Below, piece after piece: positions 949 through 21,556 of a stretch of 28,769 bases of DNA. The DNA is taken from positions 1-28,769 of the IMG/VR virus record IMGVR_UViG_3300034027_000002. The stretch is one strand, 5' to 3'. Under the pieces are notes generated by a model. That model had not been told where the DNA came from. It did no database searches and saw only the letters and a list, made by a program, of their open reading frames with translations. The DNA is from a virus. A program made the translations under genes and the position numbers. How positions within the stretch are numbered: the first letter of the stretch is position 1; each line of letters opens with the position of its first letter.

Positions 949-978
949 TTGTCAATTGGTAAATTATTGGTATATACT
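949..978 (+). promoter_or_regulatory. Promoter of the SSB/RNR block with operator site A in the spacer
   Basis: TTGTCA (949-954), an 18-bp spacer and TATACT (973-978) make a sigma70-like promoter about 70 bases before the ATG at 1053. The spacer holds two same-strand TTGGTA hexamers (956-961 and 967-972) exactly 11 bp apart, one helical turn. The 21-bp block 954-974 recurs without a mismatch, inverted, at 18747-18767. A site between -35 and -10 is a typical repressor position. Confidence 0.6.
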
Positions 979-1052
979 AAAGAGGTAGGGCAAACACAAA
1001 GCGTCGCCCCAACTAACAAAAATCAACACTAATTTAAAGGGAACAACCCAAC

Positions 1053-2045
1053 ATGATGAACATATTAGAAGCAATCCAAGCTAATAACACTGATACCATC
1101 GATATCAAACCGTTCGCACAAGTGTTTGTGGGTAACGCTTCAACCCAAAAAGGCGTAGGTGTTTTTATATCAGATGAGCAAGGGGAAAAAGCTGGTTTTG
1201 TTCCCACCGAAGGATCAGGGTGGATTAAACACAAACATGTATTTAAAAATGCTGACGAGTTTACTGAAGGTGTGATCAACGCATCGCCTAGAATGGTATT
1301 GTTAACTGCTTCTAGCTTAGGCATGTTTTCCAAAGAAACGGGTAAATATGAGCGTGATTACAATGACGACATCTACAAGGGGTATGATGGGATGCCGTTG
1401 TCCTGGTTTGATAAGCCAGAAAATCAAAACAGAATAAAAACCTATCCCAACAAAAACAAGTATGATCTCAAAACAAAATACATGGTGTTTTTCCTAGGGA
1501 AAGATAACGAGTTTTTGCATGAGATACCAATGCAGTTGACGTTAAAAGGTGTTGCAGGTGGTTCATTTGGTGGCAAACTCAAAGAATTTAAACAGAACTT
1601 CTGCACCGTAACCAAGAAAAACCGCGATTTGCGTAGTTCCTTCTGGGTACAGTGTGTCTTTCAACCAGTCTTTAAATCAGAACTTTTCCAATTTACTGGG
1701 GGTTCTGCCACTGTTGCTAAGGTTACAGGTTTTACCCCACTAACCGCCGATAACTTGGAACAACAACTAGAGCGAGTTTACTTATATCAGCCCGAAGTTG
1801 AAAAACGCTTAAAAGACGCTAGAGAATCACTAGCAGATTATGGCTGGGTCAAAGAAATCCAAATACCTATTGAAGAACCCACCCCACAAACTAAAGCGCC
1901 TGAAGCTTCTCCAGAAGGAAGCGCACTACTTAATCACATCCGAAACAGTATTATCCCAGATGATATTAAGTACTCTGATAATGACATTGTGTATGGGAAA
2001 AGCGAAACTTTAGCGCCTGAAGATGAAAGCGATATCCCATTCTAA
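1053..2045 (+). CDS. Phage single-stranded DNA-binding protein-like
   Basis: A 330-residue protein probably coating single-stranded DNA during phage replication. The main evidence is the C-terminus: after a polar, proline-rich tail (about residues 265-325) it ends acidic-then-hydrophobic, EDESDIPF. This matches the conserved SSB tip (DDDIPF type) that recruits other replication proteins. The first 240 residues are a mixed beta-rich core that I do not recognise as a classical OB fold; from memory it resembles the cyanobacterial family DUF5895. AAAGGGA before the ATG provides a ribosome binding site; a second ATG follows immediately. It is the first gene of the DNA-metabolism block, consistent with a replication role. 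The SSB-type tail is visible directly; DNA binding by the core is inference. Confidence 0.65.
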   Translation: MMNILEAIQANNTDTIDIKPFAQVFVGNASTQKGVGVFISDEQGEKAGFVPTEGSGWIKHKHVFKNADEFTEGVINASPRMVLLTASSLGMFSKETGKYERDYNDDIYKGYDGMPLSWFDKPENQNRIKTYPNKNKYDLKTKYMVFFLGKDNEFLHEIPMQLTLKGVAGGSFGGKLKEFKQNFCTVTKKNRDLRSSFWVQCVFQPVFKSELFQFTGGSATVAKVTGFTPLTADNLEQQLERVYLYQPEVEKRLKDARESLADYGWVKEIQIPIEEPTPQTKAPEASPEGSALLNHIRNSIIPDDIKYSDNDIVYGKSETLAPEDESDIPF

Positions 2046-2062
2046 CCCCCACCAATAATCCA

Positions 2063-2089
2063 AATGTCCCACTAATTTTGTGGGACATT
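2063..2089. terminator. Repeated hairpin, copy 1 (ATGTCCCAC/GTGGGACAT)
   Basis: AATGTCCCAC (2063-2072) and GTGGGACATT (2080-2089) are perfect complements around a seven-base loop. A loose T-rich stretch follows. It separates the SSB-like gene from the RNR gene. Three further copies occur at 4680, 18190 and 24194. It is likely a terminator or transcript-end structure, although the T-tract is poor. Confidence 0.6.
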
Positions 2090-2120
2090 GAGTGTTTTTA
2101 GTAAATTTTAGGTGATTAAT

Positions 2121-3887
2121 ATGAGTAAGTACGCAGCTAAAACCGGAAGAGTGCGCCGTTATGAGTCCGATGTCCAAAACAATGTTCCCATCGATCAGCG
2201 GCTTTTGCCAGTGTCATGCACGATTTACCTCTATAAAAAAGCGTTGCATGAGCTATTAGAATTTTGTTCTAAGTCTCTCCGGTTCGGTTCAGGGGTAAAA
2301 GTTCATTTCGGTAGCGATGACTTGACCCCTGAGAAGCTAACAGAAATTAAAGAGTGGTACTTCATGATCGATGAAGCCCACCCAGATTTTAATAAAATAT
2401 TCGCTTTGCCCACCTACTTGAGAACCCGGTATCTATCCCCTGCCGCCTTTAAAAATAGATTTGGGGACAACCCGTATTTAAAACATCGAATTATAACCGT
2501 TGCTGATTCGATGCAAGAAAACCAACCGGGCAAAGACTCAATCGAAGAATCATGGTACAGCTTCGAGGTTGCCTTGCAGCTTGGTTATGTTCCTATCGTT
2601 GACTTATCCCACCTAAGACCCGCTGGGACACCCTCAGGCTCAACCACAGCCGCTAAACAATTGATTGCTACTGGTCCGCTTGGAATGGGAGATGACCCCC
2701 GTAACCCAGAATCAGGGTCATTTGTGTCCATTTACGCTAGAATATTCGACTTTTTACGAAGTGGGGATATAGTTGCGCTGATGCAATTACTTGGGCAATT
2801 GAACCGAACACTATTACAAGGCAGAGAAAAAACGGGGATTATTTGCACCGGGATAGATTACGAGTCCCCGCACGTGGAAAGATATTTAAATTTCCCACTG
2901 ATGAAGCTGCTGGGAAGCCAGAAAAAAGCTATCAGAATCGATGAAGGTTTGTTAGAGTTTCCTGAACTAATGCAATTGATTTGTGCAAAAGTCAATAGTG
3001 AATCATTGTTTTTAGAGAAAAAATTACCTGGTGGTTTACTAAGTAATGTGTGTGGGGAAATTGCAATGTTACCCGAAGCAACATGCAACTTACAACACAC
3101 CAACGCCGGAATGATTGAAAAACCAGGGGATATCCCTCAAGCAATGGCTGAGGTTTCCTACGACTTGATTCAAAACTGGTTAACGTGGCGGGATAATGTT
3201 TCTCCCGATGTGGCAAACATTTATTTACCACTAGAGGATGATCGGCAAGTTGGTTTAGGTTGGATTGGTTGGGCTAATTTCATGGCTAACCAACAAGTTA
3301 CCTATTATGAGTTTGCCCACACCCTCAAAAACTTTTTAGATGAAGTAGAGCAAGGTTTTCCCAATATACGCGCCCCTAAAACCACAGCAGAGGAAATATG
3401 TATGAATTTGTATGTGGGGTACATCAGATGCAGCGAAATGGGAGAGGAATACGGTATTGATAGAATGTTCACAATTGCCCCTACTCAGTCACTATTTGCA
3501 ACTACCAAAGATATCAACGGGAATACATGCTCTCGCGGTATCGTTGCCCCATTCGCTAGACGTATAAGACGGTCTAGCGACAGTAAAAAATCACAATTCG
3601 TTTTCCACGGTAAAGAAATAGAAATTGCTTCTGAGGTGGGTAGTGATGTACATGAATTGTTACATGATCAATGGCAGCGTCTAATGAATTTAACAGGTAA
3701 AGCCCATACAATTACTTATGATTTATGGCATAATATCGACGTTAACTGGTTAACTTCATTTATTACTGAAATGAATTTAGTGACCACTTACTACAACTTT
3801 TCAAGTAGCTTGAATAATGATTATCTCGATAAGGGAAAAATTCAGCAACTTGATGTAAATTCAATGACTTGTGATTGTGCCCAATAG
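2121..3887 (+). CDS. nrdA: Class I ribonucleotide reductase large (alpha) subunit, compact divergent form
   Basis: It would reduce ribonucleotides to deoxyribonucleotides with the diiron partner encoded next. Visible RNR signatures, in order (588 residues from the ATG at 2121): HLRPAGTP then a TGPLG loop (164-188), the usual 'RPkG...GP' region; C242 in a predicted strand; N309-V-C311-G-E313, the active-site NxCxE motif with the thiyl cysteine; C322, the expected redox partner; R375-QVGLGWIGW, the usual RxIGLGxxG motif; APTQS (453-457), the phosphate-binding loop; Y557-Y558, the tyrosine dyad of class I radical transfer; and C584/C586 at the C-terminus for re-reduction. At 588 residues it is well below the usual 700-760 and lacks an N-terminal ATP-cone, so dATP feedback may be absent. 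The frame opens at a GTG at 2112, but AGGTG is better read as the ribosome binding site for the ATG at 2121. The tyrosine dyad and the neighbour argue against class II. Confidence 0.8.
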   Translation: MSKYAAKTGRVRRYESDVQNNVPIDQRLLPVSCTIYLYKKALHELLEFCSKSLRFGSGVKVHFGSDDLTPEKLTEIKEWYFMIDEAHPDFNKIFALPTYLRTRYLSPAAFKNRFGDNPYLKHRIITVADSMQENQPGKDSIEESWYSFEVALQLGYVPIVDLSHLRPAGTPSGSTTAAKQLIATGPLGMGDDPRNPESGSFVSIYARIFDFLRSGDIVALMQLLGQLNRTLLQGREKTGIICTGIDYESPHVERYLNFPLMKLLGSQKKAIRIDEGLLEFPELMQLICAKVNSESLFLEKKLPGGLLSNVCGEIAMLPEATCNLQHTNAGMIEKPGDIPQAMAEVSYDLIQNWLTWRDNVSPDVANIYLPLEDDRQVGLGWIGWANFMANQQVTYYEFAHTLKNFLDEVEQGFPNIRAPKTTAEEICMNLYVGYIRCSEMGEEYGIDRMFTIAPTQSLFATTKDINGNTCSRGIVAPFARRIRRSSDSKKSQFVFHGKEIEIASEVGSDVHELLHDQWQRLMNLTGKAHTITYDLWHNIDVNWLTSFITEMNLVTTYYNFSSSLNNDYLDKGKIQQLDVNSMTCDCAQ

Positions 3888-3920
3888 TTTAGGTTTTCCC
3901 ACATTTTTAAGGTGAATTTC

Positions 3921-4658
3921 ATGACAAATATATACACGGTAGAAACTCTTGAATCGCAGCGTACAGTATGGAAAGCTAAACCTATTAAATGGGAACCGCT
4001 AGAAATCGAAGAATTAGAGCCAGCTATACAACGAGCGATCGCCCTAGGATTAGTTTTAGAATTACCCGTTGCTGGCTGGGTGGGTGATGCCGTTAAATTT
4101 CTTCAAAGTCGAGTAAGCCCCGCAACCCTTAAATCAATGGGCAAAAATATCAACGATGAGAGAAATCATTACAACTCGTTTATGTATGCGTCGGCAGTTT
4201 ACACACCAACCGTTGAAATGACTAAGGAAGCCGACGCGATCGCCGCTGCATGGGACGAACACCCAGCCAGTACACTTATGAAAGCTGCTACATCAGAAAG
4301 TGGTGTTTTTCTCCCATCTTTGTTTTTGTTGTCCCAATTTGGGGGGCATGAGTTAGCAAACATAGGGACGCAAATATCAGAAGATGAATTTAGGCACGTC
4401 GTCATAAATTGGAACGTCCTAAAAGTAATGGGAGAACAACGATCAGCTTTTACATCTTTACGCGACTTACGCCTCCAAACCCTTGAGTTTATATTTAGAG
4501 ATGTTGTTGTCCCAGACATGGGGATTGACCTAGATTTTATGCTGGAGCAATCTGATCTGTTAGTTCAAGATGGGCACGCACCAGAGTTACAAACCCTTAG
4601 CCGCCACGCTGTTTATATGGTTCCGTTTGAAAATGAAAACGAAGCCCTCTATAAATAA
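3921..4658 (+). CDS. nrdB: Ribonucleotide reductase small (beta) subunit-like, ferritin-type dimetal protein
   Basis: Expected to hold the dimetal cofactor that generates the radical for the large subunit encoded 33 bp upstream. Numbered from the ATG at 3921 (AAGG eight bases before; a GTG at 3912 lies within that site), the protein has 245 residues, against 320-375 for typical NrdF/NrdB. Candidate metal ligands fit the six-ligand R2 pattern: E47 (tentative), E80-R-N-H83, E126 and E156-F-R-H159, two EXXH helices. The position four after the first histidine, the radical tyrosine in E. coli R2 (H118/Y122), is F87, as in chlamydial class Ic R2 with a Mn/Fe cofactor. Tyr84 is adjacent. The C-terminal tail carries tyrosines (VYMVPF, ALYK) that could serve in docking or radical transfer. 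The shortened stretch between E83-H86-like and E126 helices is odd. Family is well supported; cofactor type is inference. Confidence 0.72.
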   Translation: MTNIYTVETLESQRTVWKAKPIKWEPLEIEELEPAIQRAIALGLVLELPVAGWVGDAVKFLQSRVSPATLKSMGKNINDERNHYNSFMYASAVYTPTVEMTKEADAIAAAWDEHPASTLMKAATSESGVFLPSLFLLSQFGGHELANIGTQISEDEFRHVVINWNVLKVMGEQRSAFTSLRDLRLQTLEFIFRDVVVPDMGIDLDFMLEQSDLLVQDGHAPELQTLSRHAVYMVPFENENEALYK

Positions 4659-4679
4659 ACCAATTCAATAAATTTTCCC

Positions 4680-4706
4680 AATGTCCCACTAATTTAGTGG
4701 GACATT
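4680..4706. terminator. Repeated hairpin, copy 2
   Basis: AATGTCCCAC (4680-4689) pairs with GTGGGACATT (4697-4706). The loop bases CTAATTTAG extend the palindrome further. It lies 22 bases after the small RNR subunit stop and directly before the promoter of the next gene, so it probably ends the SSB-RNR transcript. The following bases are T-rich (TTGTTATTTTT), the best T-tract of the four copies. Confidence 0.65.
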
Positions 4707-4741
4707 GTTATTTTTAGTGTTATTATTGGTATAACACCAAT
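4705..4741 (+). promoter_or_regulatory. Promoter with palindromic operator site B
   Basis: ATTGGT-ATAAC-ACCAAT (4725-4741) is a perfect inverted repeat of the TTGGTA element. It covers a possible -10 (TATAAC, 4730-4735) with TTGTTA (4705-4710) as a wide-spaced -35. It lies 20 bases before the ATG at 4761. The degenerate TTAGTG 11 bp upstream may be a weak tandem half-site. Confidence 0.5.
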
Positions 4742-4760
4742 AGTTCAGGTATGATAACAG

Positions 4761-5327: not shown

Positions 5328-5778
5328 TAAAATCACAGTTGAATTAATATTTGAATCACCAATACAGTTTCAAATAGAAGGTGCATTTGTCCCCAAAGCT
5401 AGACCTAGGGTTAATATGAAAACCCACCAAGTTTACATGGACTCAACATATACCACCTCTCAAGAATTAATCATGAGACAAATGCTAGCTAATTGGCGTG
5501 GTGAAACAATACAACGAGCTAACATAATGTGTTTTTTGAGGGGTAATTTACCCGGTGATGTGGATAATTTAGTGGGTGCTGTGTTGGATGCGATGAAGAA
5601 AGGTGAAATAATTGCCGACGATACTAAGGCAGTTATCCCAGTATTGTATGCCGAGTGGGAAAAAGCTGATTACACCGGGGCATTAATTTATTTACAACCC
5701 GTAGCTATTCCCAAAACCCCCACTTCGATATCACCCAGTCAAGAATTGTTTACTGATTTTTTGGAGTTTCCCACATGA
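5317..5778 (+). CDS. rusA: RusA-type Holliday junction resolvase
   Basis: 153 residues. RusA-family nucleases are dimeric metal-dependent enzymes that cut four-way junctions, removing branches from replicating or recombining phage DNA before packaging. The defining motif is clear: GDVDNLVGAVLDAMKKG (about residues 79-95) followed by IADDTKAV, supplying the conserved acidic residues (the DxDN, LDA and DD elements). The N-terminal PKARPR (27-32) corresponds to the family's conserved 'PxxRPR' strand. The ATG at 5317 overlaps the preceding gene by 11 bases and the stop overlaps the next start (ATGA), placing it inside a tightly coupled operon with dCTP deaminase. The C-terminal 25 residues are a proline/serine-rich extension of unknown role. 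Confidence 0.85.
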   Translation: MKTNKITVELIFESPIQFQIEGAFVPKARPRVNMKTHQVYMDSTYTTSQELIMRQMLANWRGETIQRANIMCFLRGNLPGDVDNLVGAVLDAMKKGEIIADDTKAVIPVLYAEWEKADYTGALIYLQPVAIPKTPTSISPSQELFTDFLEFPT

Positions 5779-6377: not shown

Positions 6378-7452
6378 TATCACCGACATTTTCACTTAAT
6401 CCTATTGTCCCAAATAACTGCAACTCACCAACACAGATATGATCTATGTTGGTGTTTTGTTGATAAAAATGAAAATAATAAGTATCTCTAGGCTCGTTGA
6501 ATTGTCCCAAGCCACCTAAATAAAATTCCGTCCACCCATTGTTTAAGTTTCCAGCGAACAGATGATTGTAACCACCATCATAAACATTGAAGTTGGTTGC
6601 CCCAGCAAACCCCTCAGCCCACGAAAAAATTCTGAGCCGTTGGATAGCATATGCCATTCTGATATTTAAACCTTGAGGACTTGTGGAGAAATTTATTTTA
6701 ACGCCCATTTCCCCAAACGGAGAACGGTTTACAACCATGCCACTATAAGGATCATTATTTTTTAGAAAATCTGTGTTAAGCTGACGGAAATTTTTAGAAG
6801 AATTGAAATAAGTATACTGGTGTACCGCTGTTGCATTGTAAGGTAATTCAATTTCAGTTACACGCCGATAAATGGCGTAATCATCTTGGACTTGTATCAA
6901 AGTTTCATCAGTTACCCCGGAAGATATCGGTATTAAATCATTAAGTTGTAAATAACCATAACCTATCGGAACCCGCGCACCTTGTTGAATAACTTGGGCG
7001 GCTCGATCAATAATATTGTTTTCCCGGTTGGCGGGGTCACTGCTTTTTTTCTGCTGGGGGCTTAATACCTCAGCAATCCCCCCAGCTATCAATGATGCAC
7101 CCATCAACCCAACCCCAGCCCCCACACCTGGGATAAACAAAGCAACCCCTACCAACGCAACCCCTAATAATCCTCTTAATATAGGGCTTCCGCTTTCTCC
7201 CTCAATGATTGGGGAAAATATTATTTGGTCTTCAGCTAGTTCTAATAACTCATCAGCGGTTGCCAACTCACGCAAGTTTTCCCCGGTTACTACTGAGTAT
7301 CTGTTACCTAATTCCCCACTTGTGTTTAAATAGTCGAAAAATCCGGGCTTTTGAAATCCAATAGCCCGGATTGCTTCGGCGGGGCTTGAAACGTCTAAGT
7401 CCCAAGTTTCCCCGAATAACTCCCCCAATTCAGCTTGAAGTATAACTTTCAT
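6367..7452 (-). CDS. Lambda I-like tail tip assembly protein with a C-terminal extension
   Basis: 361 residues. Residues 1-85 look like the beta-grasp domain of the lambda tail assembly protein I family. They are followed by a glycine-rich hydrophobic stretch (about 92-130, LLGVALVGVALFIPGVGAG...) and the conserved ARVPIGYGYLQLN segment (about 158-170), the 'G..VPv.YG' signature of this family. In lambda, I helps assemble the tail-tip complex. Residues about 190-361 are an aromatic, beta-rich extension not found in lambda I, possibly a carbohydrate- or partner-binding domain. Its K-like partner is also on this strand but is separated by the helicase gene. Its start lies inside the preceding ribbon-helix-helix gene (23-base overlap), so the two share a transcript. 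No terminator is seen after it. Confidence 0.72.
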   Translation of the reverse strand: MKVILQAELGELFGETWDLDVSSPAEAIRAIGFQKPGFFDYLNTSGELGNRYSVVTGENLRELATADELLELAEDQIIFSPIIEGESGSPILRGLLGVALVGVALFIPGVGAGVGLMGASLIAGGIAEVLSPQQKKSSDPANRENNIIDRAAQVIQQGARVPIGYGYLQLNDLIPISSGVTDETLIQVQDDYAIYRRVTEIELPYNATAVHQYTYFNSSKNFRQLNTDFLKNNDPYSGMVVNRSPFGEMGVKINFSTSPQGLNIRMAYAIQRLRIFSWAEGFAGATNFNVYDGGYNHLFAGNLNNGWTEFYLGGLGQFNEPRDTYYFHFYQQNTNIDHICVGELQLFGTIGLSENVGDIRA

Positions 7453-7681
7453 GTTTTTTCGTTTTATGAGACAGCTTAGTTAATTGCTCTATTCCTATAT
7501 TTTCAATCAACCCTAGTAGAAAATCGAATTTATCCAAGTTGTCTAAATACCTCTTTACTACCTCTGTCTTAGTTATTTGGTGTTTTACCGCATACTCATC
7601 TAACTTTACCGCGTGCGACGGCGCTATCTGAACCGTTAACCACTTCTTATCGGAGTTTAGTTGTTGCTTCGTCGTTGCCAT
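7430..7681 (-). CDS. Ribbon-helix-helix (Arc/CopG-type) DNA-binding regulator
   Basis: 83 residues. The pattern K-WLTVQIAPSHAVKLDEYA (residues 12-31), then KHQITKTEVVKRYLDNLDKF (33-52), is a strand followed by two helices, as in the MetJ/Arc/CopG fold. Such dimers insert a beta-ribbon into the major groove and bind tandem sites about one helical turn apart. The C-terminal 30 residues are a charged tail. Its upstream region has a perfect minus-strand -10 (TATAAT), the palindrome CACTAATTTAGTG and paired TTGGTATA elements shared with the divergent helicase promoter, suggesting autoregulation. It is the only clear DNA-binding regulator in the window and a good candidate for reading the dispersed TTGGTA sites. 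It overlaps the downstream tail gene. Confidence 0.72.
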   Translation of the reverse strand: MATTKQQLNSDKKWLTVQIAPSHAVKLDEYAVKHQITKTEVVKRYLDNLDKFDFLLGLIENIGIEQLTKLSHKTKKHESYTSS

Positions 7682-7704
7682 GTCAATAATCCCTAGTGTT
7701 TTCT

Positions 7705-7760
7705 CAATTATACCACTAATTTAGTGTGATCAATGGTAATTGGTATATAATTGGTATAAG
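7705..7760. promoter_or_regulatory. Divergent control region with operator site C
   Basis: AATTGGTATA occurs twice (7738-7747 and 7749-7758), 11 bp apart on the same strand, overlapping a plus-strand TATAAT (7746-7751) before the helicase. A third near copy (ATGGTA) is at 7733. The palindrome CACTAATTTAGTG (7714-7726) and a minus-strand TATAAT (rc of 7706-7711) serve the regulator gene at 7681. The same site could therefore control both directions. Confidence 0.6.
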
Positions 7761-7776
7761 GTGAATAATCGACATT

Positions 7777-9291: not shown

Positions 9292-10081
9292 GTTCTTTAT
9301 GACGAAGAATAACCCGTGTTATATCTCGATACCATGATCCATAAACAGCGGGTTCCGATAATCTACCAACTACGTGATGGTAGATTATATTTCTGTCCGG
9401 TTCCACAAAAATAGCACAGTGATTGATATTATCTGAATTCAAATTCATTAGAAACACATCCCCCTTTTGTAGGGGGATTTCTGATAAGGTAGTCCCTATT
9501 TTCTTAAACCCAGCCGCTTCAAAGTTTTCCTCGAATTTAGACCACTGCCCATCATCCCACGCATATAGTAAACCCCTCTCAAAATCGGGTAATTTAATAC
9601 CAAACTCTTTCAAGTAATACGCCTGTAATAATGAATAACAGTCGTAAACTCCCCAAGTGAAAACCCTGCCAAGCAGAGGTATTTCAACAATAGGATCTGA
9701 CGGGTCAACTAAGCTAAAACTCTTATCATGTGGGGAAACTATCAACCAAGGTAATTTGGTCTTTTTACAGGATGCCTTGTCAGCATCCGAGGGCAAACTA
9801 GAGGTGTGGGGATGTGTATGCGCGATCGCCAAAACTTTTCCCCTAGTTGAGGCTAAAACCACCGACGAAGGATCTAAAATAAACATCCTTTCGCCCATGT
9901 CTTCTTCTACCACTTCACCATCAGCATTGGTGTAACTATAGGTTTCAGCGACGTTAGCACATGGGAAAAATGATTGTCTACCTTCTTTGAGTAATATAAA
10001 ACCGCACCCTTCCCGTGGATGGACTTTTAATCCATACTCAGCGATTTCATCTATTAGATAATCTTCGGGTTTAAAGTTCAT
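9284..10081 (-). CDS. Lambda K-like tail tip protein: JAMM peptidase plus NlpC/P60 domain
   Basis: About 265 residues with two domains, as in lambda K. The N-terminal domain has a JAMM/MPN metalloprotease motif: PREGCGF, then HTHPHTSSLPSDAD (about residues 92-105), fitting H-x-H-P-x6-S-x2-D with zinc-binding histidines and aspartate. The C-terminal NlpC/P60 domain has the catalytic cysteine in YDCYSLLQAYY, the histidine in NHCAIF and a further His-His in IIYHHVVG. This protein sits at the tail tip and is thought to act in tip maturation and in cell-wall passage during DNA entry. The frame is open from an ATG at 10090; I chose the ATG at 10081 because it forms an ATGA overlap with the stop of the M15 gene. 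The I-like partner is at 6367-7452. Confidence 0.85.
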   Translation of the reverse strand: MNFKPEDYLIDEIAEYGLKVHPREGCGFILLKEGRQSFFPCANVAETYSYTNADGEVVEEDMGERMFILDPSSVVLASTRGKVLAIAHTHPHTSSLPSDADKASCKKTKLPWLIVSPHDKSFSLVDPSDPIVEIPLLGRVFTWGVYDCYSLLQAYYLKEFGIKLPDFERGLLYAWDDGQWSKFEENFEAAGFKKIGTTLSEIPLQKGDVFLMNLNSDNINHCAIFVEPDRNIIYHHVVGRLSEPAVYGSWYRDITRVILRHKELM

Positions 10082-10846: not shown

Positions 10847-12334
10847 TTAGGTAAATCGATAATAACTTTCAGTGCGTGCCCATATGTTAGGCTTTTTCCT
10901 CGATGTGTCTGTCGGTACTACACTATAAGCTAACATCAAACTTATAGCAGCGTCCCCATGTCGGGGCATCATATCAGCGCCCGTAAACTCCATATTAGTT
11001 GGCACTTTGGGAACACCTTGGATTAGTTGAACCGTTAAATGATCATCGATAATATCTTCATCATTGGGTAGTGTTAGTGTCTTAAGCCCTAATGCCGCTT
11101 TGTACCTGGGGAAATGGGACAAGTAGTATTCTGCCGTCAACTTAACTTGGTTAATTCGATGCGTGCCGAAATCTAGAGCCATCTCCTCAGCCAAAAAAGA
11201 GCCGTTGCCCGTAGCATCAAAAGCGGCTTTTTTGAGCCGTTTGAATTTTCCCAAGATAAACCGGGTTATTTGGGCTTGGCAGTGGAATGGCGTATTTCTC
11301 AATTCCACAATGAGAGGGACAGAACGAACTTTGTCAATATCTTCTATGAGAATGGACAAAACCGTTAAATCATGTGATCGCCCAAAATCTAACCCCGCAT
11401 ATGTTTTGTAATTAGTGATGATGAATTTATCAATATAAGGGGCAACGGTATCATTAAGCCAGTCGTTAACTATGCCTAATTGTTCCCCGCGTTGTTTATC
11501 GATAAAGTTTTGGGAACAACTAAACCTCAATACCCCACCTGCAATAGTTGCTGCTGATTCTACAACATGCCTATTAAAAAACTGCCCTGAACCGCTCGAA
11601 GGTTGACAGTATAATTCTTCCGCTGCATGTTCCCCATAATCCGCTACTAAATCCTTAAGCCATTGGTCTTCTTTGTCTTGTGACCACAATTCACCGCCAA
11701 CCTCACAAATACGCTTATACAGCCCCTCAGACAGCGCTAAATCAATAGGGTATTCATGCAACACAAAATTACTTTTACCTTGCTTAATGGCTTTTACAAT
11801 GCTATTAAATGGGTGTGCCTCTCCGTTGTGGGTGCTAATAATTCTTAGTTTACCGCCCCACATCAACAAAGCCATAGCCGCTTTCATCAGCGCGGGTAAA
11901 TTTTGTTGGTGGGCGGCTTCATCAATACACACTACCCCTTGCATACCCCTCATGTTGCTAGGGTTAGAGGAAAGGGCGTAAATTTTGCAACCACCTATAA
12001 AACTTATAGAGTACGCCTTAATCGCATCATCTTCGCTTACCCACATATCATCTTCTGGCTTCCAATCATCCTGACGGTAGCCGTGAACCGCCCTTGCCCA
12101 ATCTGAGCAAGTATCTATAAATTCCTTGGCTAGGTCTTCACGAGTCGATATGTAAAGATAATCAGTGCCTCCCTCTCGCTTAATTTGGGAAGCTATTAAC
12201 ACTGCGTCTAATGCCTCTGCCCATGTTAAACCTATGCGGCGACTCTTCACCGCCACTTTAACTTTGCTATTGTCCCACAGCCAACGACATTGATATGGGA
12301 AACAAATGTCCGGTTTTAACTCAAGTTCACTCAC
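10847..12334 (-). CDS. terL: Terminase large subunit (Mu gp28-like type)
   Basis: 495 residues; the packaging motor ATPase and DNA-cutting nuclease. The ATPase domain has a variant Walker A, K30-SRRIGLTW (30-38), and Walker B GVVCIDEA (133-140, D138/E139), with a coupling motif ISTHNG (166-171). The RNase H-like nuclease domain shows AGLDFG (D316), AAFDATGNG (D373) and HGDAAISL (D461), the three metal-binding aspartates. The 'YQxxWLxDxSxxKxxxKSRRIGLTWA' opening resembles FluMu gp28-type large terminases. Its start overlaps the small subunit stop. The portal, which normally follows, is not here; an M15 peptidase and tail-tip gene follow instead. Confidence 0.88.
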   Translation of the reverse strand: MSELELKPDICFPYQCRWLWDNSKVKVAVKSRRIGLTWAEALDAVLIASQIKREGGTDYLYISTREDLAKEFIDTCSDWARAVHGYRQDDWKPEDDMWVSEDDAIKAYSISFIGGCKIYALSSNPSNMRGMQGVVCIDEAAHQQNLPALMKAAMALLMWGGKLRIISTHNGEAHPFNSIVKAIKQGKSNFVLHEYPIDLALSEGLYKRICEVGGELWSQDKEDQWLKDLVADYGEHAAEELYCQPSSGSGQFFNRHVVESAATIAGGVLRFSCSQNFIDKQRGEQLGIVNDWLNDTVAPYIDKFIITNYKTYAGLDFGRSHDLTVLSILIEDIDKVRSVPLIVELRNTPFHCQAQITRFILGKFKRLKKAAFDATGNGSFLAEEMALDFGTHRINQVKLTAEYYLSHFPRYKAALGLKTLTLPNDEDIIDDHLTVQLIQGVPKVPTNMEFTGADMMPRHGDAAISLMLAYSVVPTDTSRKKPNIWARTESYYRFT

Positions 12335-12778: not shown

Positions 12779-12833
12779 ACACCAATCATACCAACTTTTA
12801 CATTAAATACATATTATTGACAACTCATTGCAA
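12779..12833 (-). promoter_or_regulatory. Terminase operon promoter with operator site D
   Basis: On the minus strand TTGCAA (12828-12833), an 18-bp spacer and TATTTA (12804-12809) form a plausible promoter. Two TTGG(T)-type half sites (ACCAA on the plus strand at 12781-12785 and 12790-12794) lie just downstream, 29 bases before the small terminase ATG. Spacing is 9 bp here rather than 11. Confidence 0.45.
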
Positions 12834-12920: not shown

Positions 12921-13260
12921 TGGGAAAATGGTGAAAAAGTGGTGAAAAGTGGTGAAAATTTAAAATTTTTCACTTTCTTTCACTTCAATTTTCACCATCG
13001 ATAAACGTAAGCTGGGAAAGGGTTTCGGGGGATTTAGTGAAAAAGTGAAATCCAACCCCCTAAGTTTATATACAAATAGTAGTTATTTTATATATGTATA
13101 TAATATGTACAGTATGAAAAAGAGCAGTAAAAAAATAGTTTACATGCAACGATTTTCACTAAATTTCACTAAAATCCCCGAAACCCTTTCCCAGAGCCAC
13201 TTTAGGTCTGGTGAAATTTTAGTGAAAGTTAGTGAGTTTTTCACCAACTTTCACTAAAAG
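12921..13260. other. Putative replication origin: mirrored GTGAAA repeats
   Basis: A gene-free region with fourteen exact copies of GTGAAA or its complement TTTCAC in about 330 bp, arranged as three mirrored groups. Group 1 has GTGAAA at 12931, 12942, 12952 facing TTTCAC at 12968, 12978, 12990. Group 2 has 13037, 13045 facing 13154, 13164. Group 3 has 13211, 13222 facing 13239, 13249. Spacing within groups is 8-12 bp, near one helical turn. The middle group brackets an AT-rich core (about 13066-13145). A G-rich stretch (12901-12923) flanks the left side. Iterated sites, an AT-rich core and a primase-helicase gene 170 bp downstream fit an origin bound by a phage initiator. A packaging site for the adjacent terminase is an alternative. 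I saw no canonical DnaA box. Confidence 0.55.
13012..13194. repeat. 31-bp inverted repeat flanking an AT-rich core
   Basis: The left arm (13012-13042) and the complement of the right arm (13164-13194) match at 29 of 31 positions; the first 19 are identical, starting CTGGGAAAGGGTTTCGGGG. The arms are separated by 121 bp containing a run such as TATATATGTATATAAT. Each arm ends in one GTGAAA repeat. It is probably the central dyad of the origin. Confidence 0.8.
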
Positions 13261-13367
13261 CCGAATTCTCACCCTAATTTTCCCATTGTTGTACGTAGAA
13301 CCAAAAATAAGGCATTTGCGGGATAATGAACTTCTCCCACGAAATCCCCAAATTAGGGATGATTACC

Positions 13368-13398
13368 TATACCAATTTTTCCACTAAACCGTTAGTAT
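13368..13398 (+). promoter_or_regulatory. Primase-helicase promoter with operator site E
   Basis: TATACCAATT (13368-13377), the complement of AATTGGTATA, overlaps where a -35 would lie for TAGTAT (13393-13398), about 32 bases before the ATG at 13431. The promoter match is weak; the TTGGTATA element is exact. Confidence 0.4.
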
Positions 13399-15992: not shown

Positions 15993-16022
15993 TATAGTTA
16001 GACCATACCAATTAGACTGGTA
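15970..16022 (+). promoter_or_regulatory. DNA polymerase promoter with operator site F
   Basis: TTACCA (15970-15975), 17 bp, TATAGT (15993-15998) form a good promoter within and just after the primase gene end. ATACCAATT...ACTGGTA (16005-16022) lies at about +1 to +18 and ends three bases before the polymerase ATG. The site would therefore block both initiation and ribosome access; no ribosome binding site is visible. Confidence 0.5.
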
Positions 16023-16024
16023 CA

Positions 16025-17785
16025 ATGAAATACATAGTTGATTCTGAAAGTTTAGGGGAAAGTTTAGCAGAGTTCCGGGGCGATAATCCAAGAGTAATAG
16101 CGGTGGACACCGAAACCACCGGATTATCGCCCCACTTTAACAAAGTGAGGCTGGTACAAATAGCTTGGGATTCTAACAAAATCCGCAAAAGTTTTGTTTT
16201 TGACTTGTTCAAAATAGGTGATTATACCCCGCTCAAAGAAATATTAGAGGGGAAAGTAATTAAGCTATTCTACAACGCAAAATTCGACATAAATATGCTG
16301 AGGGGTGCGGGAATATCAGTTACCAAACCCGTCAAAGATTTAATGTTGTATTTTGGCGTGCTGACTAATGGTGAAGTACAAAGACCCAATTTGGCGATCG
16401 CTTACAACATGGTAATAGACCCAGATCAGCCAATGGAAACCAAGACTAAGAAAAAGAACCAGCAGTCAGACTGGGCTAAGTGGGACTTAGACCAAGAACA
16501 ACTAGAGTACGCTGCTCATGATGCTGATATTTTATTAGATATGTTTCCCATACTCCGGGCAGCAGTTGATCAAGCCGAATTAACGCCAATAGTGGAAAAA
16601 ATAGAACACCCGGCTATGTGGGCGGCGGCTGATATGGAGTTTAACGGTGTCCCAGTAGATCAGGAAGTATTTTCCATTTTGAAAGCTGAGGTTGAACCAC
16701 AGGTTACAGCGGCTAAGGCTAAAGTTGAAGCTATATTTGCAGAGGTGGGAATCGATAAAATAAACCTCAACAGCTACAAACAAGTTATCAAAGCACTAGC
16801 CGCCGTTGGTATTGAAGTTACAAGCACCGCTGAAAACGCACTTAAAGAAATTGATCACCCAATCATAGACGATTTGTTGGCGTATAAATCAGCTACTAAG
16901 TTGATGCAATTCGTTAACAAACTACCAACACATGTTGACCCAGTAACGGGGAGAATTCATTGTAGTTTTAATATGTTAGGGACGGTAACAGGGCGCGTTA
17001 GCTGTCTTTCTCCCAATTTGCAACAAATACCACGTAATCCGTTTCTACGCACCTTTATAAAAGCTAATAAAGGTTATAAAATAGTTGTTGCGGATTACTC
17101 ACAAATTGAATTAGTTTTAGCAGCGGAAATAAGTCAAGATCCAACGATGGTAAAGGCTTATAACGAAGGCGCTGATATTCATAGAATCACCGCCTCACTT
17201 CTGTTAAACAAGCCACCGTCAGAAATAACTAAGCAAGAAAGACAACTTGCAAAAGCTGTAAACTTCGGTTTAGTTTATGGGATGGGAGCGGCTAAGTTGG
17301 TGTTATACAGTAAGAATACTTACGGTGTAAAAATGACGTTAGAGGAAGCCCAAGAATACCGTAGTAAGTTTTTCCAAACGTATCCAGGTTTAATGCAATG
17401 GCATCAACGATCAAGCCACGAGATAAAAGCTTACCGACCCAAATTCGTTAAAACACTATCAGGGAGAAAAAGATTATTTTCCCATGATAAATTCGCCCAT
17501 AACGCAATAAGATTTACAAGCTACGTCAACACTCAAGACCAAGGAACCGGGGGAGACATAACAAAAAGAGCATTAGCAAAATGTAGATCTGTCTTTATTG
17601 GTCATGATGTTAACCTAATATTACAGGTTCATGATGAAATTTGTTTAGAAGTTCGTGAAGATTTAGCAGAATGGGCGGCTACGACTCTGGAGAAATGTAT
17701 GGTAGAGGCTGGGAAAGAATTTGTAAAAACTGTACCTGTTATGGTAGAAGTTTCTATTGCTGATTCATGGGGCGATGCAAAATGA
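16025..17785 (+). CDS. polA: Family A DNA polymerase with 3'-5' exonuclease
   Basis: 586 residues; the replicative phage polymerase. The exonuclease domain has AVDTETTG (D28, E30), LFYNAKFDINML (D88) and EYAAHDADI (Y162, D166), a complete DEDDy set, so proofreading is expected. The polymerase domain has GRIHCSFNMLGTVTGRVS (309-326), motif A VVADYSQIELVLAAE (354-368, D357), motif B RQLAKAVNFGLVYG (406-419) and motif C LQVHDEICLEV (533-543, D537). There is no 5'-3' nuclease domain, typical of phage enzymes. Motif B has the phenylalanine of Pol I rather than the tyrosine of T7. It begins 32 bp after the primase-helicase and overlaps the next gene by ATGA. Confidence 0.95.
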   Translation: MKYIVDSESLGESLAEFRGDNPRVIAVDTETTGLSPHFNKVRLVQIAWDSNKIRKSFVFDLFKIGDYTPLKEILEGKVIKLFYNAKFDINMLRGAGISVTKPVKDLMLYFGVLTNGEVQRPNLAIAYNMVIDPDQPMETKTKKKNQQSDWAKWDLDQEQLEYAAHDADILLDMFPILRAAVDQAELTPIVEKIEHPAMWAAADMEFNGVPVDQEVFSILKAEVEPQVTAAKAKVEAIFAEVGIDKINLNSYKQVIKALAAVGIEVTSTAENALKEIDHPIIDDLLAYKSATKLMQFVNKLPTHVDPVTGRIHCSFNMLGTVTGRVSCLSPNLQQIPRNPFLRTFIKANKGYKIVVADYSQIELVLAAEISQDPTMVKAYNEGADIHRITASLLLNKPPSEITKQERQLAKAVNFGLVYGMGAAKLVLYSKNTYGVKMTLEEAQEYRSKFFQTYPGLMQWHQRSSHEIKAYRPKFVKTLSGRKRLFSHDKFAHNAIRFTSYVNTQDQGTGGDITKRALAKCRSVFIGHDVNLILQVHDEICLEVREDLAEWAATTLEKCMVEAGKEFVKTVPVMVEVSIADSWGDAK

Positions 17786-18186
17786 AAAATATAAACCCAG
17801 AGCTTACCTTAGATAGTTTGCTGCTGGACCTCAAAGCTAAAGTCATTAAAATAGGTTTACTAGGGGAATACACACGGATTGATCGAACTAAAACGGCGGC
17901 GCTTTGGGTAGGACTCGAAGATCCTAACTCCGGTTTTATTATGGGAACGGGCTTACAAGCAGTTATACGCCCTTACTCCGCAAGTGTTCAGCAAGTAATT
18001 AACCAACGTTATGTAATGTTGATCGCGGCTGAGGTCACTTTCACCGCCCACGGCGTTAAATTTCCCCGTGATTTCTTAGAAACTCTTACAGCCACATTCA
18101 CAGGGAAGTATCGCCAAGTTGAAATTTTATTCCAACAAGGTACTGATAAAACCCTCACTCAATACTCAGTAAGGGTTTTTGCATAA
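17782..18186 (+). CDS. Small alpha/beta protein, possibly a tail terminator/completion protein
   Basis: 134 residues from the ATG at 17782, which overlaps the polymerase stop (ATGA); the frame extends to 17767 but that start has no support. An N-terminal helix (LDSLLLDLKAKVIKIGLL) is followed by strands: AALWVGLEDP, GLQAVIRP, YVMLIAAEVTF, TATFTGKYRQVEIL and a final QYSVRVF. A helix plus antiparallel sheet ending in a 'xYxVRV' strand is the general layout of phage neck and tail-terminator proteins, and it lies about 670 bp before the tail tube gene. However, it is co-transcribed with the polymerase, so a replication accessory role is also possible. The function call is weak. Confidence 0.55.
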   Translation: MKNINPELTLDSLLLDLKAKVIKIGLLGEYTRIDRTKTAALWVGLEDPNSGFIMGTGLQAVIRPYSASVQQVINQRYVMLIAAEVTFTAHGVKFPRDFLETLTATFTGKYRQVEILFQQGTDKTLTQYSVRVFA

Positions 18187-18189
18187 ACC

Positions 18190-18215
18190 AATGTCCCACA
18201 AAATTAGTGGGACAT
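18190..18215. terminator. Repeated hairpin, copy 3, between convergent genes
   Basis: AATGTCCCAC (18190-18199) and GTGGGACAT (18207-18215) form the stem. It lies exactly between the convergent stops at 18186 and 18217, the expected place for a bidirectional terminator. No T-tract follows on either strand, so termination would depend on the stem itself or on a factor. Confidence 0.6.
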
Positions 18216-18739
18216 CACAATAAAAACATTGCAATTAAGCCGATTGCAGCCAATAAAATAACTAAACCCGCTACTAAGTTCTGATCGTCTACCTCATCGT
18301 ATTTAGGCTTCACAACCACAGCGGGTTTATTCCTGCGAGGGCGAAAAAATTTAGCCTCGGCTTCCTCCCATTGTGAAGTTGGCAAAACATATTCTTCCCA
18401 ACCCGCCGCTAACCGCCTATAAAAAGTTTCGTTGTTATACCTACCGCTTACTGGGTCTGTTATTCTACCCTTGGTTGGGTGATTTGTATATATCACTATC
18501 CAATTATCGCTGGCGTGCGCTTCGCCGTGATGTTGGGCGCATACCGGGAACAGATTAAACCCCGGTTTATCTTCCAGCCCCCCTTGAGTGTAGAAAGCGT
18601 GATGAGTTGTTTTTGCCACGTCGCCGCACAACACGCATCTTTTCCCCGTTAATGCTTTAGTAAACGGCGATAAGTAATCCTTAAAATCTTCTGAGTAACA
18701 ATCCTTGGACCATTCCGAATATTCTACCGCGCTTTTCAT
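18215..18739 (-). CDS. HNH nuclease-like protein with C-terminal membrane anchor
   Basis: 174 residues from the ATG at 18739 (AGG five bases before; a GTG at 18745 also opens the frame). Residues 35-75 form an HNH/zinc module: C35-V-L-C38, T-H46-H47-AFY, N62-LF and C67-AQH70-H71-GEAH75. The final 21 residues (NLVAGLVILLAAIG..., 154-174) are a single hydrophobic helix at the extreme C-terminus, so the protein would be tail-anchored with the nuclease domain in the cytoplasm. Between them is a basic and then acidic linker. Most phage HNH proteins are soluble homing or packaging nucleases; a membrane anchor suggests action at the inner membrane, for example on incoming DNA. It is a single-gene minus-strand unit, and operator site G almost touches its start. 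Catalytic activity is inferred from the motif only. Confidence 0.72.
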   Translation of the reverse strand: MKSAVEYSEWSKDCYSEDFKDYLSPFTKALTGKRCVLCGDVAKTTHHAFYTQGGLEDKPGFNLFPVCAQHHGEAHASDNWIVIYTNHPTKGRITDPVSGRYNNETFYRRLAAGWEEYVLPTSQWEEAEAKFFRPRRNKPAVVVKPKYDEVDDQNLVAGLVILLAAIGLIAMFLL

Positions 18740-18746
18740 ATTCACC

Positions 18747-18767
18747 TATACCAATAATTTACCAATT
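18747..18767 (-). promoter_or_regulatory. Operator site G, identical to site A
   Basis: On the minus strand this is the same 21 bp as 954-974: two TTGGTA hexamers 11 bp apart. It ends 7 bases before the HNH gene ATG, so it sits in the leader, downstream of a possible -10 (TAATAT, rc of 18783-18788). Perfect conservation over 21 bp in an intergenic position is strong evidence of a protein-binding site. Confidence 0.65.
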
Positions 18768-18803
18768 TAATACTAATTTAGCATATTAGGCGGGAACAAT
18801 GTG

Positions 18804-18814
18804 TTATATAAGAA
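18804..18814 (+). promoter_or_regulatory. Shared box TTATATAAGAA before the tail tube gene
   Basis: The same 11 bases occur at 24222-24232. Both copies lie about 40 bases before the ATG of a virion gene (43 here, 38 there), with no other homology nearby. This could be a late-promoter element recognised with a phage factor. Confidence 0.35.
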
Positions 18815-18856
18815 AAGCTTTAGTGCTAGACTTTGAGAGTAGGTATAAGCTTATAT

Positions 18857-19510
18857 ATGTCTTACCAATTTACGTCAAGCACCTATTTTAGGGTTGGAGC
18901 GTTAGCCACTGGAACTACTAAACCCACCGAAAAAACTTTAACCGTGACATCAGCGGCAATTGTTGGAGCAACATCATTAACCGTAGCTGCAACAACGGGG
19001 TTTATAAGTTCTGGTTCTAAATTTACGATTGGCGGCGCTACTTTCACAGTTGCAGAGGATGCACCCAGAGGAAGCACTGAGTTAGTGTTAGCAACTCCTT
19101 TAACTGCCCCAATCACCGCGAACGCCACAACTAAATACTATGAGTTATTTGAGTTTTTAGGTGGGGAAGGAATCGATCTAAACGGTCAAGATCAGGTAAT
19201 CAACGTTAGGAATTTTAAATCAGGTCAATGGGGAGCAAACGTCAAAATTATGACGGGTGTATCGTGTGATCTTGAAGGACAATTTTTAACCGAAGATTTA
19301 GCTATCACCGCGATTATTCGCCCCGCTTATTTTACGTTAGGCGGAGACATTTACGCCGAAATTACACGGGACAATGGCGACAAATGGATGGGCGCTTTTT
19401 TGGTGTCTAATTACTCGGAATCCGCAGCATTAGATAACATCTTACGTGTACGATATTCTCTCCAATCTCAAGGCGCTGTTGCAATCCCCGCCCCGCCGAT
19501 CTTGACATGA
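18857..19510 (+). CDS. Major tail tube protein-like
   Basis: 217 residues from the ATG at 18857; the frame extends to a TTG at 18833 without support. The C-terminal half resembles siphovirus tail tube proteins of the lambda V/TP901-1 kind: NFKSGQWGANVKIMTG, then SCDLEGQF, an IRPAYFTLGGDIYAEIT strand pair, and the closing GAFLVSNYSES-LDNILRVRYSLQSQGAV, which matches the usual 'G.a.vs.......Dd...ys.sLqG.G' ending. Residues about 27-98 form an inserted beta domain (LTVTSAAIVGATSLTVA...GGATFTVA) that is also present in the decoration-like protein at 19730. It overlaps the next gene by ATGA. The tube would stack as rings around the tape measure encoded at 24270. Confidence 0.6.
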   Translation: MSYQFTSSTYFRVGALATGTTKPTEKTLTVTSAAIVGATSLTVAATTGFISSGSKFTIGGATFTVAEDAPRGSTELVLATPLTAPITANATTKYYELFEFLGGEGIDLNGQDQVINVRNFKSGQWGANVKIMTGVSCDLEGQFLTEDLAITAIIRPAYFTLGGDIYAEITRDNGDKWMGAFLVSNYSESAALDNILRVRYSLQSQGAVAIPAPPILT

Positions 19511-19722
19511 ACTATCTAAAACATTCGGGGGATTTAACCGCGCTGGTTAATGTGGAAGTTACAGAAAAACAACTTAAATGTAACTACTTTTATTTACACC
19601 ACAACTGCCCCAATGTTGTAACGGTGTCCGGAGAACAAGGAACTTTTATGATAGATGTCACAAAATTCCTAAAAAAGACACCCACTGATTACGCCGGAGA
19701 AATACTTATAGATTTCATTTAA
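19507..19722 (+). CDS. Small hypothetical protein in the virion block
   Basis: 71 residues, mostly beta (ALVNVEVTEKQLKCNYFYLHH; NVVTVSGEQGTFMIDV; GEILIDFI). I do not recognise it. Its start overlaps the tail tube stop (ATGA) and its stop is seven bases before the decoration-like gene, so it is translated with the virion proteins. It may be a minor structural or connector protein. Two cysteines near a His-His pair (CNYFYLHHNC) could bind metal, but this is only a pattern. Confidence 0.6.
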   Translation: MNYLKHSGDLTALVNVEVTEKQLKCNYFYLHHNCPNVVTVSGEQGTFMIDVTKFLKKTPTDYAGEILIDFI

Positions 19723-19729
19723 GGTAACT

Positions 19730-20362
19730 ATGAAAACGATCCAATATAGTGAATTTGAAAAGTCTAACCCGTTGTGGATGGCTGATCGCGCCCAATACGA
19801 GAATTATATTCCCGGTGGCGCTAGATTACGCCGTGCTAGCGTCGTGGGAGAATCACGTATAGTTCCCAGCGGCTCTTTAGTTGGGAGAACCGCTAAGGCT
19901 AATCAGTTTGAACTAATTCTTCCCACTAATATCAAAATCGGCGGAAACTTCGTAACTACCAATAACACAACTTTGGTGGAACCCGCCGCCCAAGGCGCTA
20001 CTGTAATTAAGGTAGCTGATACTGATGGGTTCACCGTTAACGCCCCTACTAATGCAATCACTATTGGCGCTTTAACCGCTACCATCGCCCAAATTAATGG
20101 GGACGGGTCAATTGTATTAACTACCGGGTTAGTTAGCGCTCAAACAGCCGGAACAGTTGTTAGATTAACTGCTGCTACCCCGTTCGTTGAATTATTTTTG
20201 ACCGCAACTGAGTTAACCAACGTTGACGAACTTAACGAGTTTACCCAGTACCGACACGGTAGAATGGTTTACTTGAACTTTTTACCGGGTTATGCTCAAT
20301 TTACCACTGATGTGTTAAACACTATTACCACGTTGTACCACCACATCTTTGCATTAGCTTAA
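19730..20362 (+). CDS. Putative head decoration/accessory protein
   Basis: 210 residues directly upstream of the major capsid gene, where lambda-like phages place the decoration protein (gpD). Residues 29-55 (GGARLRRAS...VPSGSLVGRT) resemble the 'ipaGtlvGR' segment of capsid-associated proteins, but I cannot assign it firmly. Residues about 76-156 hold a beta domain (GATVIKVADTDGFT...ITIGALTATIA...GSIVLTTGL) with the same pattern as the insert in the tail tube-like protein. The C-terminal part (ELNEFTQYRHGRMVYLNFLPGY) may contact the capsid. AAGGTAACT lies before the ATG. Context is the main support for the head assignment. Confidence 0.45.
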   Translation: MKTIQYSEFEKSNPLWMADRAQYENYIPGGARLRRASVVGESRIVPSGSLVGRTAKANQFELILPTNIKIGGNFVTTNNTTLVEPAAQGATVIKVADTDGFTVNAPTNAITIGALTATIAQINGDGSIVLTTGLVSAQTAGTVVRLTAATPFVELFLTATELTNVDELNEFTQYRHGRMVYLNFLPGYAQFTTDVLNTITTLYHHIFALA

Positions 20363-20389
20363 TTACTAATAAAACCTAAATTAACCAAT

Positions 20390-21520
20390 ATGGAAACAAT
20401 TACCGCTCTTATCAGAGAACTGGAAGAAAACCAAGCTTTTGCCATTTCTGCAAACGATCCTACTTTGCAATTTGAAAACGGTGGGCAAAATCTACTTTTC
20501 TCCAGTGTTCTCCCAGAACGCCAAGTAGCTCAAAACTCTTATCGCGATTGGGGAATCCGTTTTAAAACGATGATCGCCAACGACGCAACCCGCTACAGCC
20601 CACCCCAAATTAAAAATGGGATGTTGATCGGCTCTGTTCAAGTAGAAATGGGAGAAGCTGACGCGGCTGGCGCAATGGACATGCAGTTTTACGAACACTT
20701 TTTACAGACGTTGGATCGTGGTTCTAGTCAAGAGGGCGCATTTCAATTACTCCGGTTCTTTGAAAACACCGTAAGCCGCCCATTAGCTATCTTACGCGAA
20801 CGCCACCGGGTAGACGCTGTTTGCCAAGGTTACGTGGAACGTCGAGGCGCTAACAACTTTTATGAAAGGGTAGATTTTCCCAAACCCGCCGGACACCGGG
20901 CAACGGTTCCTAGTGGGACAACCGCCGCCCCTACTGGTTGGTATGATCCGGATCACGACATCTTAGGCACTCTCAAGATGTTTAAGAAAATGCTAGCCAA
21001 AAAAGGCTACAGAATAAGCCGTATCATTACCACCGAAGATATATTAAGCGATTGCATCATCCCTAACAACGCTATTCGGGCTTATGGGGTAATGACTGTA
21101 ACCGCCCCCGGTGGTAATCAAGGGTTTGAGTTACAAACACGCCCCGAAGCGCAAGCCATGATAAACGCTTTCGCCGCGATCCAAGTACCCGTTCCAGTCA
21201 CTTACGACGCTGGGTATAGTGATCAGCTTGGTTGGCAACCATTTATGAAAAACAAGTTTGTCATTCTTTGCCAAACTGGTAGACAAGCTGAGGTAAGAAT
21301 CGATGGGGAAGAACCCGCGTTACTTCTGCCTAATACTATCGGATATTATGGTATCGGTGTCGCTACGGGTCAACTAGCGCCCGGTGTACGTTATAAAGTC
21401 GATTCCAAAGATGGGAAAGACGCTAATATTTACGCTGAAGGCTGGATGAGTGGTTTTCCCATCATCCAAGATCCGGAAGCGTTCGCGGTGTTAACAATCC
21501 CCGAACCCACTGAAGTATAA
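20390..21520 (+). CDS. Major capsid protein, lambda E-like (HK97 fold)
   Basis: 376 residues, the usual size for the lambda gpE family. Recognisable features: an N-terminal arm, the segment RDWGIRFKTMIANDATRYSPPQIKNG (about 49-74), a long spine helix region (LQTLDRGSSQEGAFQLLRFFENTVSRPLAILRER), a central domain (DHDILGTLKMFKKMLAKKGYRISRIITTEDILSD) typical of Phage_cap_E proteins, and a C-terminal strand region (RYKVDSKDGKDANIYAEGWMSGFPIIQDPEAFAVLTI) common at the end of this family. It builds the icosahedral shell. It follows the decoration-like gene by 27 bp and shows no clear ribosome binding site, odd for so abundant a protein. No scaffold, protease or portal gene is adjacent, so those must lie outside the window. 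Confidence 0.75.
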   Translation: METITALIRELEENQAFAISANDPTLQFENGGQNLLFSSVLPERQVAQNSYRDWGIRFKTMIANDATRYSPPQIKNGMLIGSVQVEMGEADAAGAMDMQFYEHFLQTLDRGSSQEGAFQLLRFFENTVSRPLAILRERHRVDAVCQGYVERRGANNFYERVDFPKPAGHRATVPSGTTAAPTGWYDPDHDILGTLKMFKKMLAKKGYRISRIITTEDILSDCIIPNNAIRAYGVMTVTAPGGNQGFELQTRPEAQAMINAFAAIQVPVPVTYDAGYSDQLGWQPFMKNKFVILCQTGRQAEVRIDGEEPALLLPNTIGYYGIGVATGQLAPGVRYKVDSKDGKDANIYAEGWMSGFPIIQDPEAFAVLTIPEPTEV

Positions 21521-21527
21521 ATACTCA

Positions 21528-21556
21528 TTACATACCAAAGGTATTGGTAGTATATT
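21528..21556 (+). promoter_or_regulatory. Promoter with operator site H
   Basis: TTACAT (21528-21533), 17 bp and TATATT (21551-21556) form a good promoter 34-60 bases before the ATG at 21590. ATACCAAAGGTATTGGTA (21532-21549), a near-palindrome with two inverted TTGGTA elements, fills the spacer, the same arrangement as at site A. Confidence 0.55.

What the first reader, a model, noticed from the sequence alone, without database searches (positions are those of the whole stretch)
954..21549. A dispersed, helically phased TTGGTA operator family upstream of eight transcription units
Sites: 954-974, 4725-4741, 7738-7758, 12779-12795, 13368-13377, 16005-16022, 18747-18767, 21532-21549. All are intergenic or at start codons. 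Three are direct pairs exactly 11 bp apart (one turn), two are inverted pairs. Two sites 17.8 kb apart (954 and 18747) are identical over 21 bp. They fall in promoter spacers (A, H), on -10 (B, C), near -35 (E), at +1 (F) or next to the start codon (G). They precede the SSB/RNR block, pyrophosphohydrolase, helicase, terminase, primase, polymerase, HNH and a small-gene operon, so one regulator may control nearly the whole phage. Single TTGGTA-like words also occur inside genes (for example near 9597 and 16807), but I did not see paired ones there.
Basis: partly seen in the sequence, partly recalled or inferred. Interest (0 to 1): 0.8.

Follow-up and report, generated by a model that had tools for sequence, protein, structure and literature searches.

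The report
Dispersed paired operators in a cyanophage
A partly sequenced virus, probably of cyanobacteria, carries near-identical short DNA words, mostly in pairs one helical turn apart, in front of most of its replication and packaging genes, very likely docking sites for one unidentified virus regulator that switches these genes together; such systems are known in a few other phages.

Summary
In the window, TTGGTA pairs up (gap 0-14 bp, either orientation) exactly four times; all four have a 5-bp gap and all are intergenic, in a sequence that is 92% coding. ATTGGTATA occurs six times, all intergenic. A motif-blind shuffle test picks the same word and spacing. Controls: no direct pair in 2.6 Mb of other viral DNA; about 0.5 per Mb in ten cyanobacterial genomes against about 100 per Mb here. 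Best reading: a dispersed operator family of one phage-encoded regulator, probably a repressor, like SPbeta's MrpR elements or L5 operators/stoperators. The host is probably cyanobacterial. Exact promoter positions are weak except at site A, because promoter-like matches are at chance level. Conservation could not be tested: no close relative was found, and distant kin (about 30-39% identity) lack the pairs. 'Nearly the whole phage' overstates: three units lack paired sites, and the record is probably a fragment.

The parts
954..974 (+). Site A: direct pair TTGGTA-N5-TTGGTA (956, 967) upstream of the DUF5895/RNR-like unit; the 17-bp pair fits inside the 18-bp spacer of a promoter-like sequence (TTGTCA 949-954, TATACT 973-978)
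4725..4741 (+). Site B: inverted repeat ATTGGT-N5-ACCAAT just before the dATP/dGTP diphosphohydrolase-like gene (start 4761)
7733..7758 (+). Site C: direct pair TTGGTA-N5-TTGGTA (7740, 7751) plus a one-mismatch half ATGGTA (7733), in the divergent gap between the 83-aa gene (-) and the helicase gene (+)
12779..12795 (-). Site D: direct halves TTGGTA and TTGGTG spaced 9 bp, upstream of the HTH (terminase small subunit-like) and terminase large subunit unit
13368..13377 (-). Site E: single ATTGGTATA, 54 bp before the primase start, oriented against the gene
16004..16022 (.). Site F: inverted pair TACCAA-N5-CTGGTA in the 32-bp gap just before the DNA polymerase start codon (16025)
18747..18776 (-). 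Site G: direct pair identical to A over 21 bp, plus a third in-phase half TTAGTA (18771-18776); next to the ribosome-binding site of the HNH-like gene
21532..21549 (.). Site H: inverted pair TACCAA-N5-TTGGTA between the major capsid gene and the small-gene unit; fits the 18-bp spacer of a weak promoter-like match (ATTACA 21527, TATATT 21551)
7430..7681 (-). Candidate regulator: 83-aa protein resembling a ribbon-helix-helix; start codon 52 bp from the nearest half of site C
   Evidence: inconclusive

Best explanation
These are dispersed operators of one phage-encoded DNA-binding regulator. The half-site is WATTGGTATR, with ATTGGTA the near-constant part. Two halves, direct or inverted, usually lie 11 bp apart start to start (N5 gap), so two bound units would sit on one face of the helix and could bind cooperatively. 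The sites lie where a bound protein would block RNA polymerase (promoter spacer at A, promoter or start-codon region elsewhere), so repression is the likeliest action. The target genes are nucleotide metabolism, helicase, primase, polymerase, terminase and a small-gene unit. Shown: the sites, their spacing, their intergenic placement and their rarity elsewhere. Inferred: one regulator, its phage origin, repression. Weakly supported: that it is the 83-aa RHH-like protein, autoregulated through site C.
For: Word and pair statistics against shuffles. All six ATTGGTATA copies intergenic. All four exact pairs at gap 5 and intergenic. No direct pair in 2.61 Mb of other viral loci. The 20-bp form occurs in three viral records, once each and apparently by chance, against three times in this window. 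No host-wide regulon: 33 varied pairs over about 64 Mb in ten cyanobacterial genomes and one 20-bp match in 371 genomes. A small DNA-binding-like gene lies divergent from site C.
Against: No relative close enough to show conservation; distant kin lack the pairs. Sites vary: E is single, D is spaced 9 bp, and B, F and H are inverted in two senses. Promoter calls are at chance level, so repression is inferred from few secure positions. The RHH identity failed RHH_1. The record is probably a fragment, so the regulator may lie outside it.
Confidence: 0.66

Rival explanations
1. The words are promoter parts: TTGGTATAAT reads as an extended -10 (TGnTATAAT), so the family is a set of similar promoters recognised by host or phage RNA polymerase, with no special regulator.
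For: The half-site ends in TATA, and several copies run into -10-like sequence (B TATAAC, C TATAAT nearby, D TATGAT). Most halves at A-D and G point toward the gene.
Against: E, F1, H1 and B2 point away from the downstream gene. A constant 11-bp pair spacing and inverted pairs are not needed for a promoter. At A and H the pair lies between the predicted -35 and -10, not on the -10. Some copies continue as TATAGG, a poor -10.
Confidence: 0.13
2. The sites bind an activator or a middle/early-class transcription factor (MotA-like or MerR-like) that switches on the replication genes.
For: The target genes are a coherent replication and nucleotide set. MerR-type activators bind in promoter spacers, as at A and H (own knowledge).
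Against: No site has the usual upstream activator position, but promoter mapping is weak. No MerR- or MotA-like protein was found in the fragment. A has a near-consensus promoter that should not need activation.
Confidence: 0.13
3. The sites are recombinase arm sites, replication iterons or partition sites rather than transcription operators.
For: In two unrelated temperate phage records similar TTGGTA-N5-TTGGTA pairs flank an attachment site. Ribbon-helix-helix partition proteins bind direct and inverted repeats (PMC5016525).
Against: Here the sites are spread over 20 kb, about one per gene start, not clustered. No integrase or ParA was found in the window. A separate repeat cluster (GTGAAA, 12922-13262) fits a replication origin better.
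Confidence: 0.05
4. The sites are targets of a host regulator that the phage exploits.
For: One cyanobacterial genome carries an intergenic 21-bp match to site G near a DndD-like gene.
Against: That genome has only three pairs, each different, at the background rate; no sampled cyanobacterial genome shows a regulon. Expected chance matches of the 20-bp pattern were estimated by hand at about 0.2-1, not by a tool. The true host is unknown and may not be sampled.
Confidence: 0.03

Closest known systems
SPbeta repeated elements (SPBRE) bound by the master repressor MrpR (PMC10516654)
   Same: Repeated element at intergenic promoter regions across one phage, first noticed in silico, later shown to be the operator of one master repressor
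   Different: SPBRE is a 15-bp motif bound by a recombinase-like protein; here a short half-site repeated in pairs 11 bp apart, regulator unknown
Mycobacteriophage L5-type operators and stoperators (PMC9283540)
   Same: Short asymmetric sites scattered over the genome in promoters and short intergenic gaps
   Different: L5 sites are 13-mers bound by a monomer, with orientation following transcription; here mostly paired, direct and inverted, with mixed orientation
Phage P1 C1 operators (own knowledge, not tested)
   Same: Asymmetric sites dispersed over the genome, single or paired
   Different: Sequence and spacing differ; no C1-like protein sought by profile
Omega/ParG/CopG-type ribbon-helix-helix repressors (PMC5016525; rest own knowledge)
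   Same: Small dimeric proteins binding short repeats in direct or inverted order
   Different: Omega uses 7-bp heptads; here the repeat is 11 bp and the protein's fold is unproven

Membership tests
Dispersed phage operator system (SPBRE/L5-like) | Same motif in many intergenic regions of one phage, rare in genes | tested here: met
Dispersed phage operator system (SPBRE/L5-like) | Bound by one phage-encoded repressor | not testable with these tools
   needs a binding assay; candidate protein only
Dispersed phage operator system (SPBRE/L5-like) | Conserved across related phages | tested here: inconclusive
   no close relative found; distant kin lack pairs
L5 stoperators | Orientation follows direction of transcription | tested here: not met
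   E, F1 and H1 point against the downstream gene
Ribbon-helix-helix protein (83-aa candidate) | Match to RHH_1 (PF01402) | tested here: not met
   no match at E<=10
Ribbon-helix-helix protein (83-aa candidate) | beta-alpha-alpha fold | tested here: inconclusive
   strand 14-20, helices 27-34 and 38-62, but pLDDT 55 and no significant PDB match
Ribbon-helix-helix protein (83-aa candidate) | Match to any small DNA-binding family | tested here: inconclusive
   DUF6364 E 0.0067, below cut-off; phrog_876 repressor E 0.0033
Tyrosine integrase arm sites | Sites flank an attachment site next to an integrase | tested here: not met
   no integrase among the Pfam hits of the window genes scanned; sites spread over 20 kb
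Extended -10 promoter family | TGnTATAAT in the direction of the gene at each site | tested here: not met
   several copies inverted or followed by TATAGG

The most novel reading that the evidence does not exclude
A cyanophage master regulator that reads one asymmetric half-site in direct or inverted pairs at a fixed one-turn spacing, so that the same protein assembly fills a promoter spacer at some genes and covers the start-codon region at others: a regulon-wide switch of a kind I know of in no cyanophage.
Probability: 0.25. Interest if true: 0.62.

Novelty: new member of a known kind. Interest (0 to 1): 0.5.

Why it matters
Genome-wide operator systems are documented for only a few phages, and gene control in cyanophages other than the marine T4- and T7-like ones is little known (own knowledge). 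Here the sites are clear enough to test directly: the SPbeta case shows that an element found in silico can lead to the master repressor. If confirmed, it would give a handle on how a cyanobacterial phage times replication and perhaps lysogeny, and a compact operator with fixed one-turn spacing for cyanobacterial expression tools.

Tried and rejected
Close relatives by single proteins in viral contigs (polymerase, 83-aa protein, helicase) and genomes (terminase): none. Alignment-based scans (terminase A1, polymerase A2) gave only distant polymerase or Mu-like terminase relatives. The dispersed terminator hairpin as a kin probe gave 20 viral stretches, none of them a relative. Pattern scan TTGGTA-N5-TTGGTATA of viral contigs is swamped by chance; following whole records led to probable integrase arm sites in two temperate phages, a different use. 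The stricter 20-bp pattern gave three chance records. In cyanobacterial genomes, a prophage with 39% terminase and 34% capsid identity and two closely related 48-50 kb contigs with related helicase and capsid genes lack the pairs; the contigs have a small gene before the helicase that looks RHH-like by eye but does not align with the candidate. Plasmid and cyanobacterial searches for the 83-aa protein gave nothing reliable. A DUF5895 alignment was too divergent for a scan.

Full report
The window is a 28,769-base viral record with no end repeats, probably a fragment. Its host is probably a cyanobacterium: twelve HIP1 octamers GCGATCGC against about 0.2 expected, a DUF5895 gene whose plasmid relatives are all cyanobacterial, and a polymerase whose best genome-contig relatives are mostly cyanobacterial.

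Of 35 exact TTGGTA words, 12 fall in the 7.7% of the window outside genes. Exact pairs with a gap of 0-14 bp, in any orientation, occur four times, all with gap 5 and all intergenic. With one mismatch allowed there are six intergenic spacing-11 pairs against 0.11 expected, and none of 1000 dinucleotide shuffles reaches that number. Because the motif was picked by eye, I also ran a motif-blind search over all hexamers and spacings: TTGGTA and ATTGGT at spacing 11 come out on top, in four separate gaps, while shuffles never exceed two. The extended half-site is WATTGGTATR; all six copies of ATTGGTATA are intergenic.

Controls outside the window agree. In 2.61 Mb of other viral loci there is no direct N5 pair. 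Ten cyanobacterial genomes hold 33 pairs of varied sequence in about 64 Mb, roughly 200 times below the window's density. The 20-bp form found three times here matches only three viral contigs, two inside genes and one between unrelated genes, and one of 371 cyanobacterial genomes. That last match is 21 bp long and intergenic near a DndD-like gene; its genome shows no excess of pairs, so I treat it as unexplained, probably chance.

What it does is inference. The sites precede the DUF5895/RNR unit (A), the diphosphohydrolase unit (B), the divergent 83-aa gene and helicase (C), the terminase unit (D), primase (E), polymerase (F), the HNH-like gene (G, with the tail and capsid unit starting about 90 bp away on the other strand) and a small-gene unit (H). 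At A the 17-bp pair fills the spacer of the only good promoter-like match among the sites; at H it fills the spacer of a weak one. Elsewhere the promoter is unclear, since promoter-like matches do not exceed chance overall. Positions in spacers and at start codons favour a repressor. Halves in both orientations speak against a simple promoter element and against an L5-like orientation rule.

The regulator is not settled. The 83-aa protein next to site C has the look of a ribbon-helix-helix (KWLTVQIA strand, then two helices) but misses RHH_1, has only sub-threshold family hits, no PDB relative and a low-confidence model built without an alignment. It remains the best candidate by position only.

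Every search for a close relative failed; distant kin at about 30-39% identity lack the pairs, which is expected if operator sequence turns over and so neither supports nor refutes.

The closest documented parallels are SPBRE/MrpR of SPbeta and L5-type operators and stoperators. The kind is known; the sequence and the paired one-turn layout are new to me, and the only paper in the held library that contains both 'cyanophage' and this word is a review of phage RNA polymerases that does not appear related (title and abstract only).

Noticed in passing
2065-2087, 4682-4704, 18192-18214, 24196-24219: Four near-identical hairpins TGTCCCAC-N7/8-GTGGGACA at gene ends, a dispersed terminator-like family.
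   Followed up: partly
22186, 22284, 22747: A second repeated promoter-like element AAAAGTGCGCTATAAT in the small-gene region that lacks TTGGTA pairs, suggesting a second expression class.
   Followed up: partly
12922-13262: Cluster of GTGAAA/TTTCAC repeats and long imperfect inverted repeats between the terminase and primase units, a candidate replication origin.
   Followed up: partly
10847-12334: Mu-like terminase large subunit in a phage with its own PolA-type polymerase and DUF3854/D5-like primase and no transposase found.
   Followed up: no
L306, L307, L053: In two unrelated temperate phage records, TTGGTA-N5-TTGGTA pairs flank an attachment site (tyrosine integrase and excisionase-like genes, or a tRNA end), probably integrase arm sites.
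   Followed up: partly
L372 8229-8249: A cyanobacterial contig has a 21-bp intergenic match to site G near a DndD-like gene.
   Followed up: partly
L359 2298-2594: Two closely related 48-50 kb contigs in cyanobacterial genomes (G598, G540) with related helicase and capsid genes carry a small RHH-looking gene just before the helicase.
   Followed up: partly
21557-21583: Strong hairpin directly downstream of site H, before the small-gene unit.
   Followed up: no
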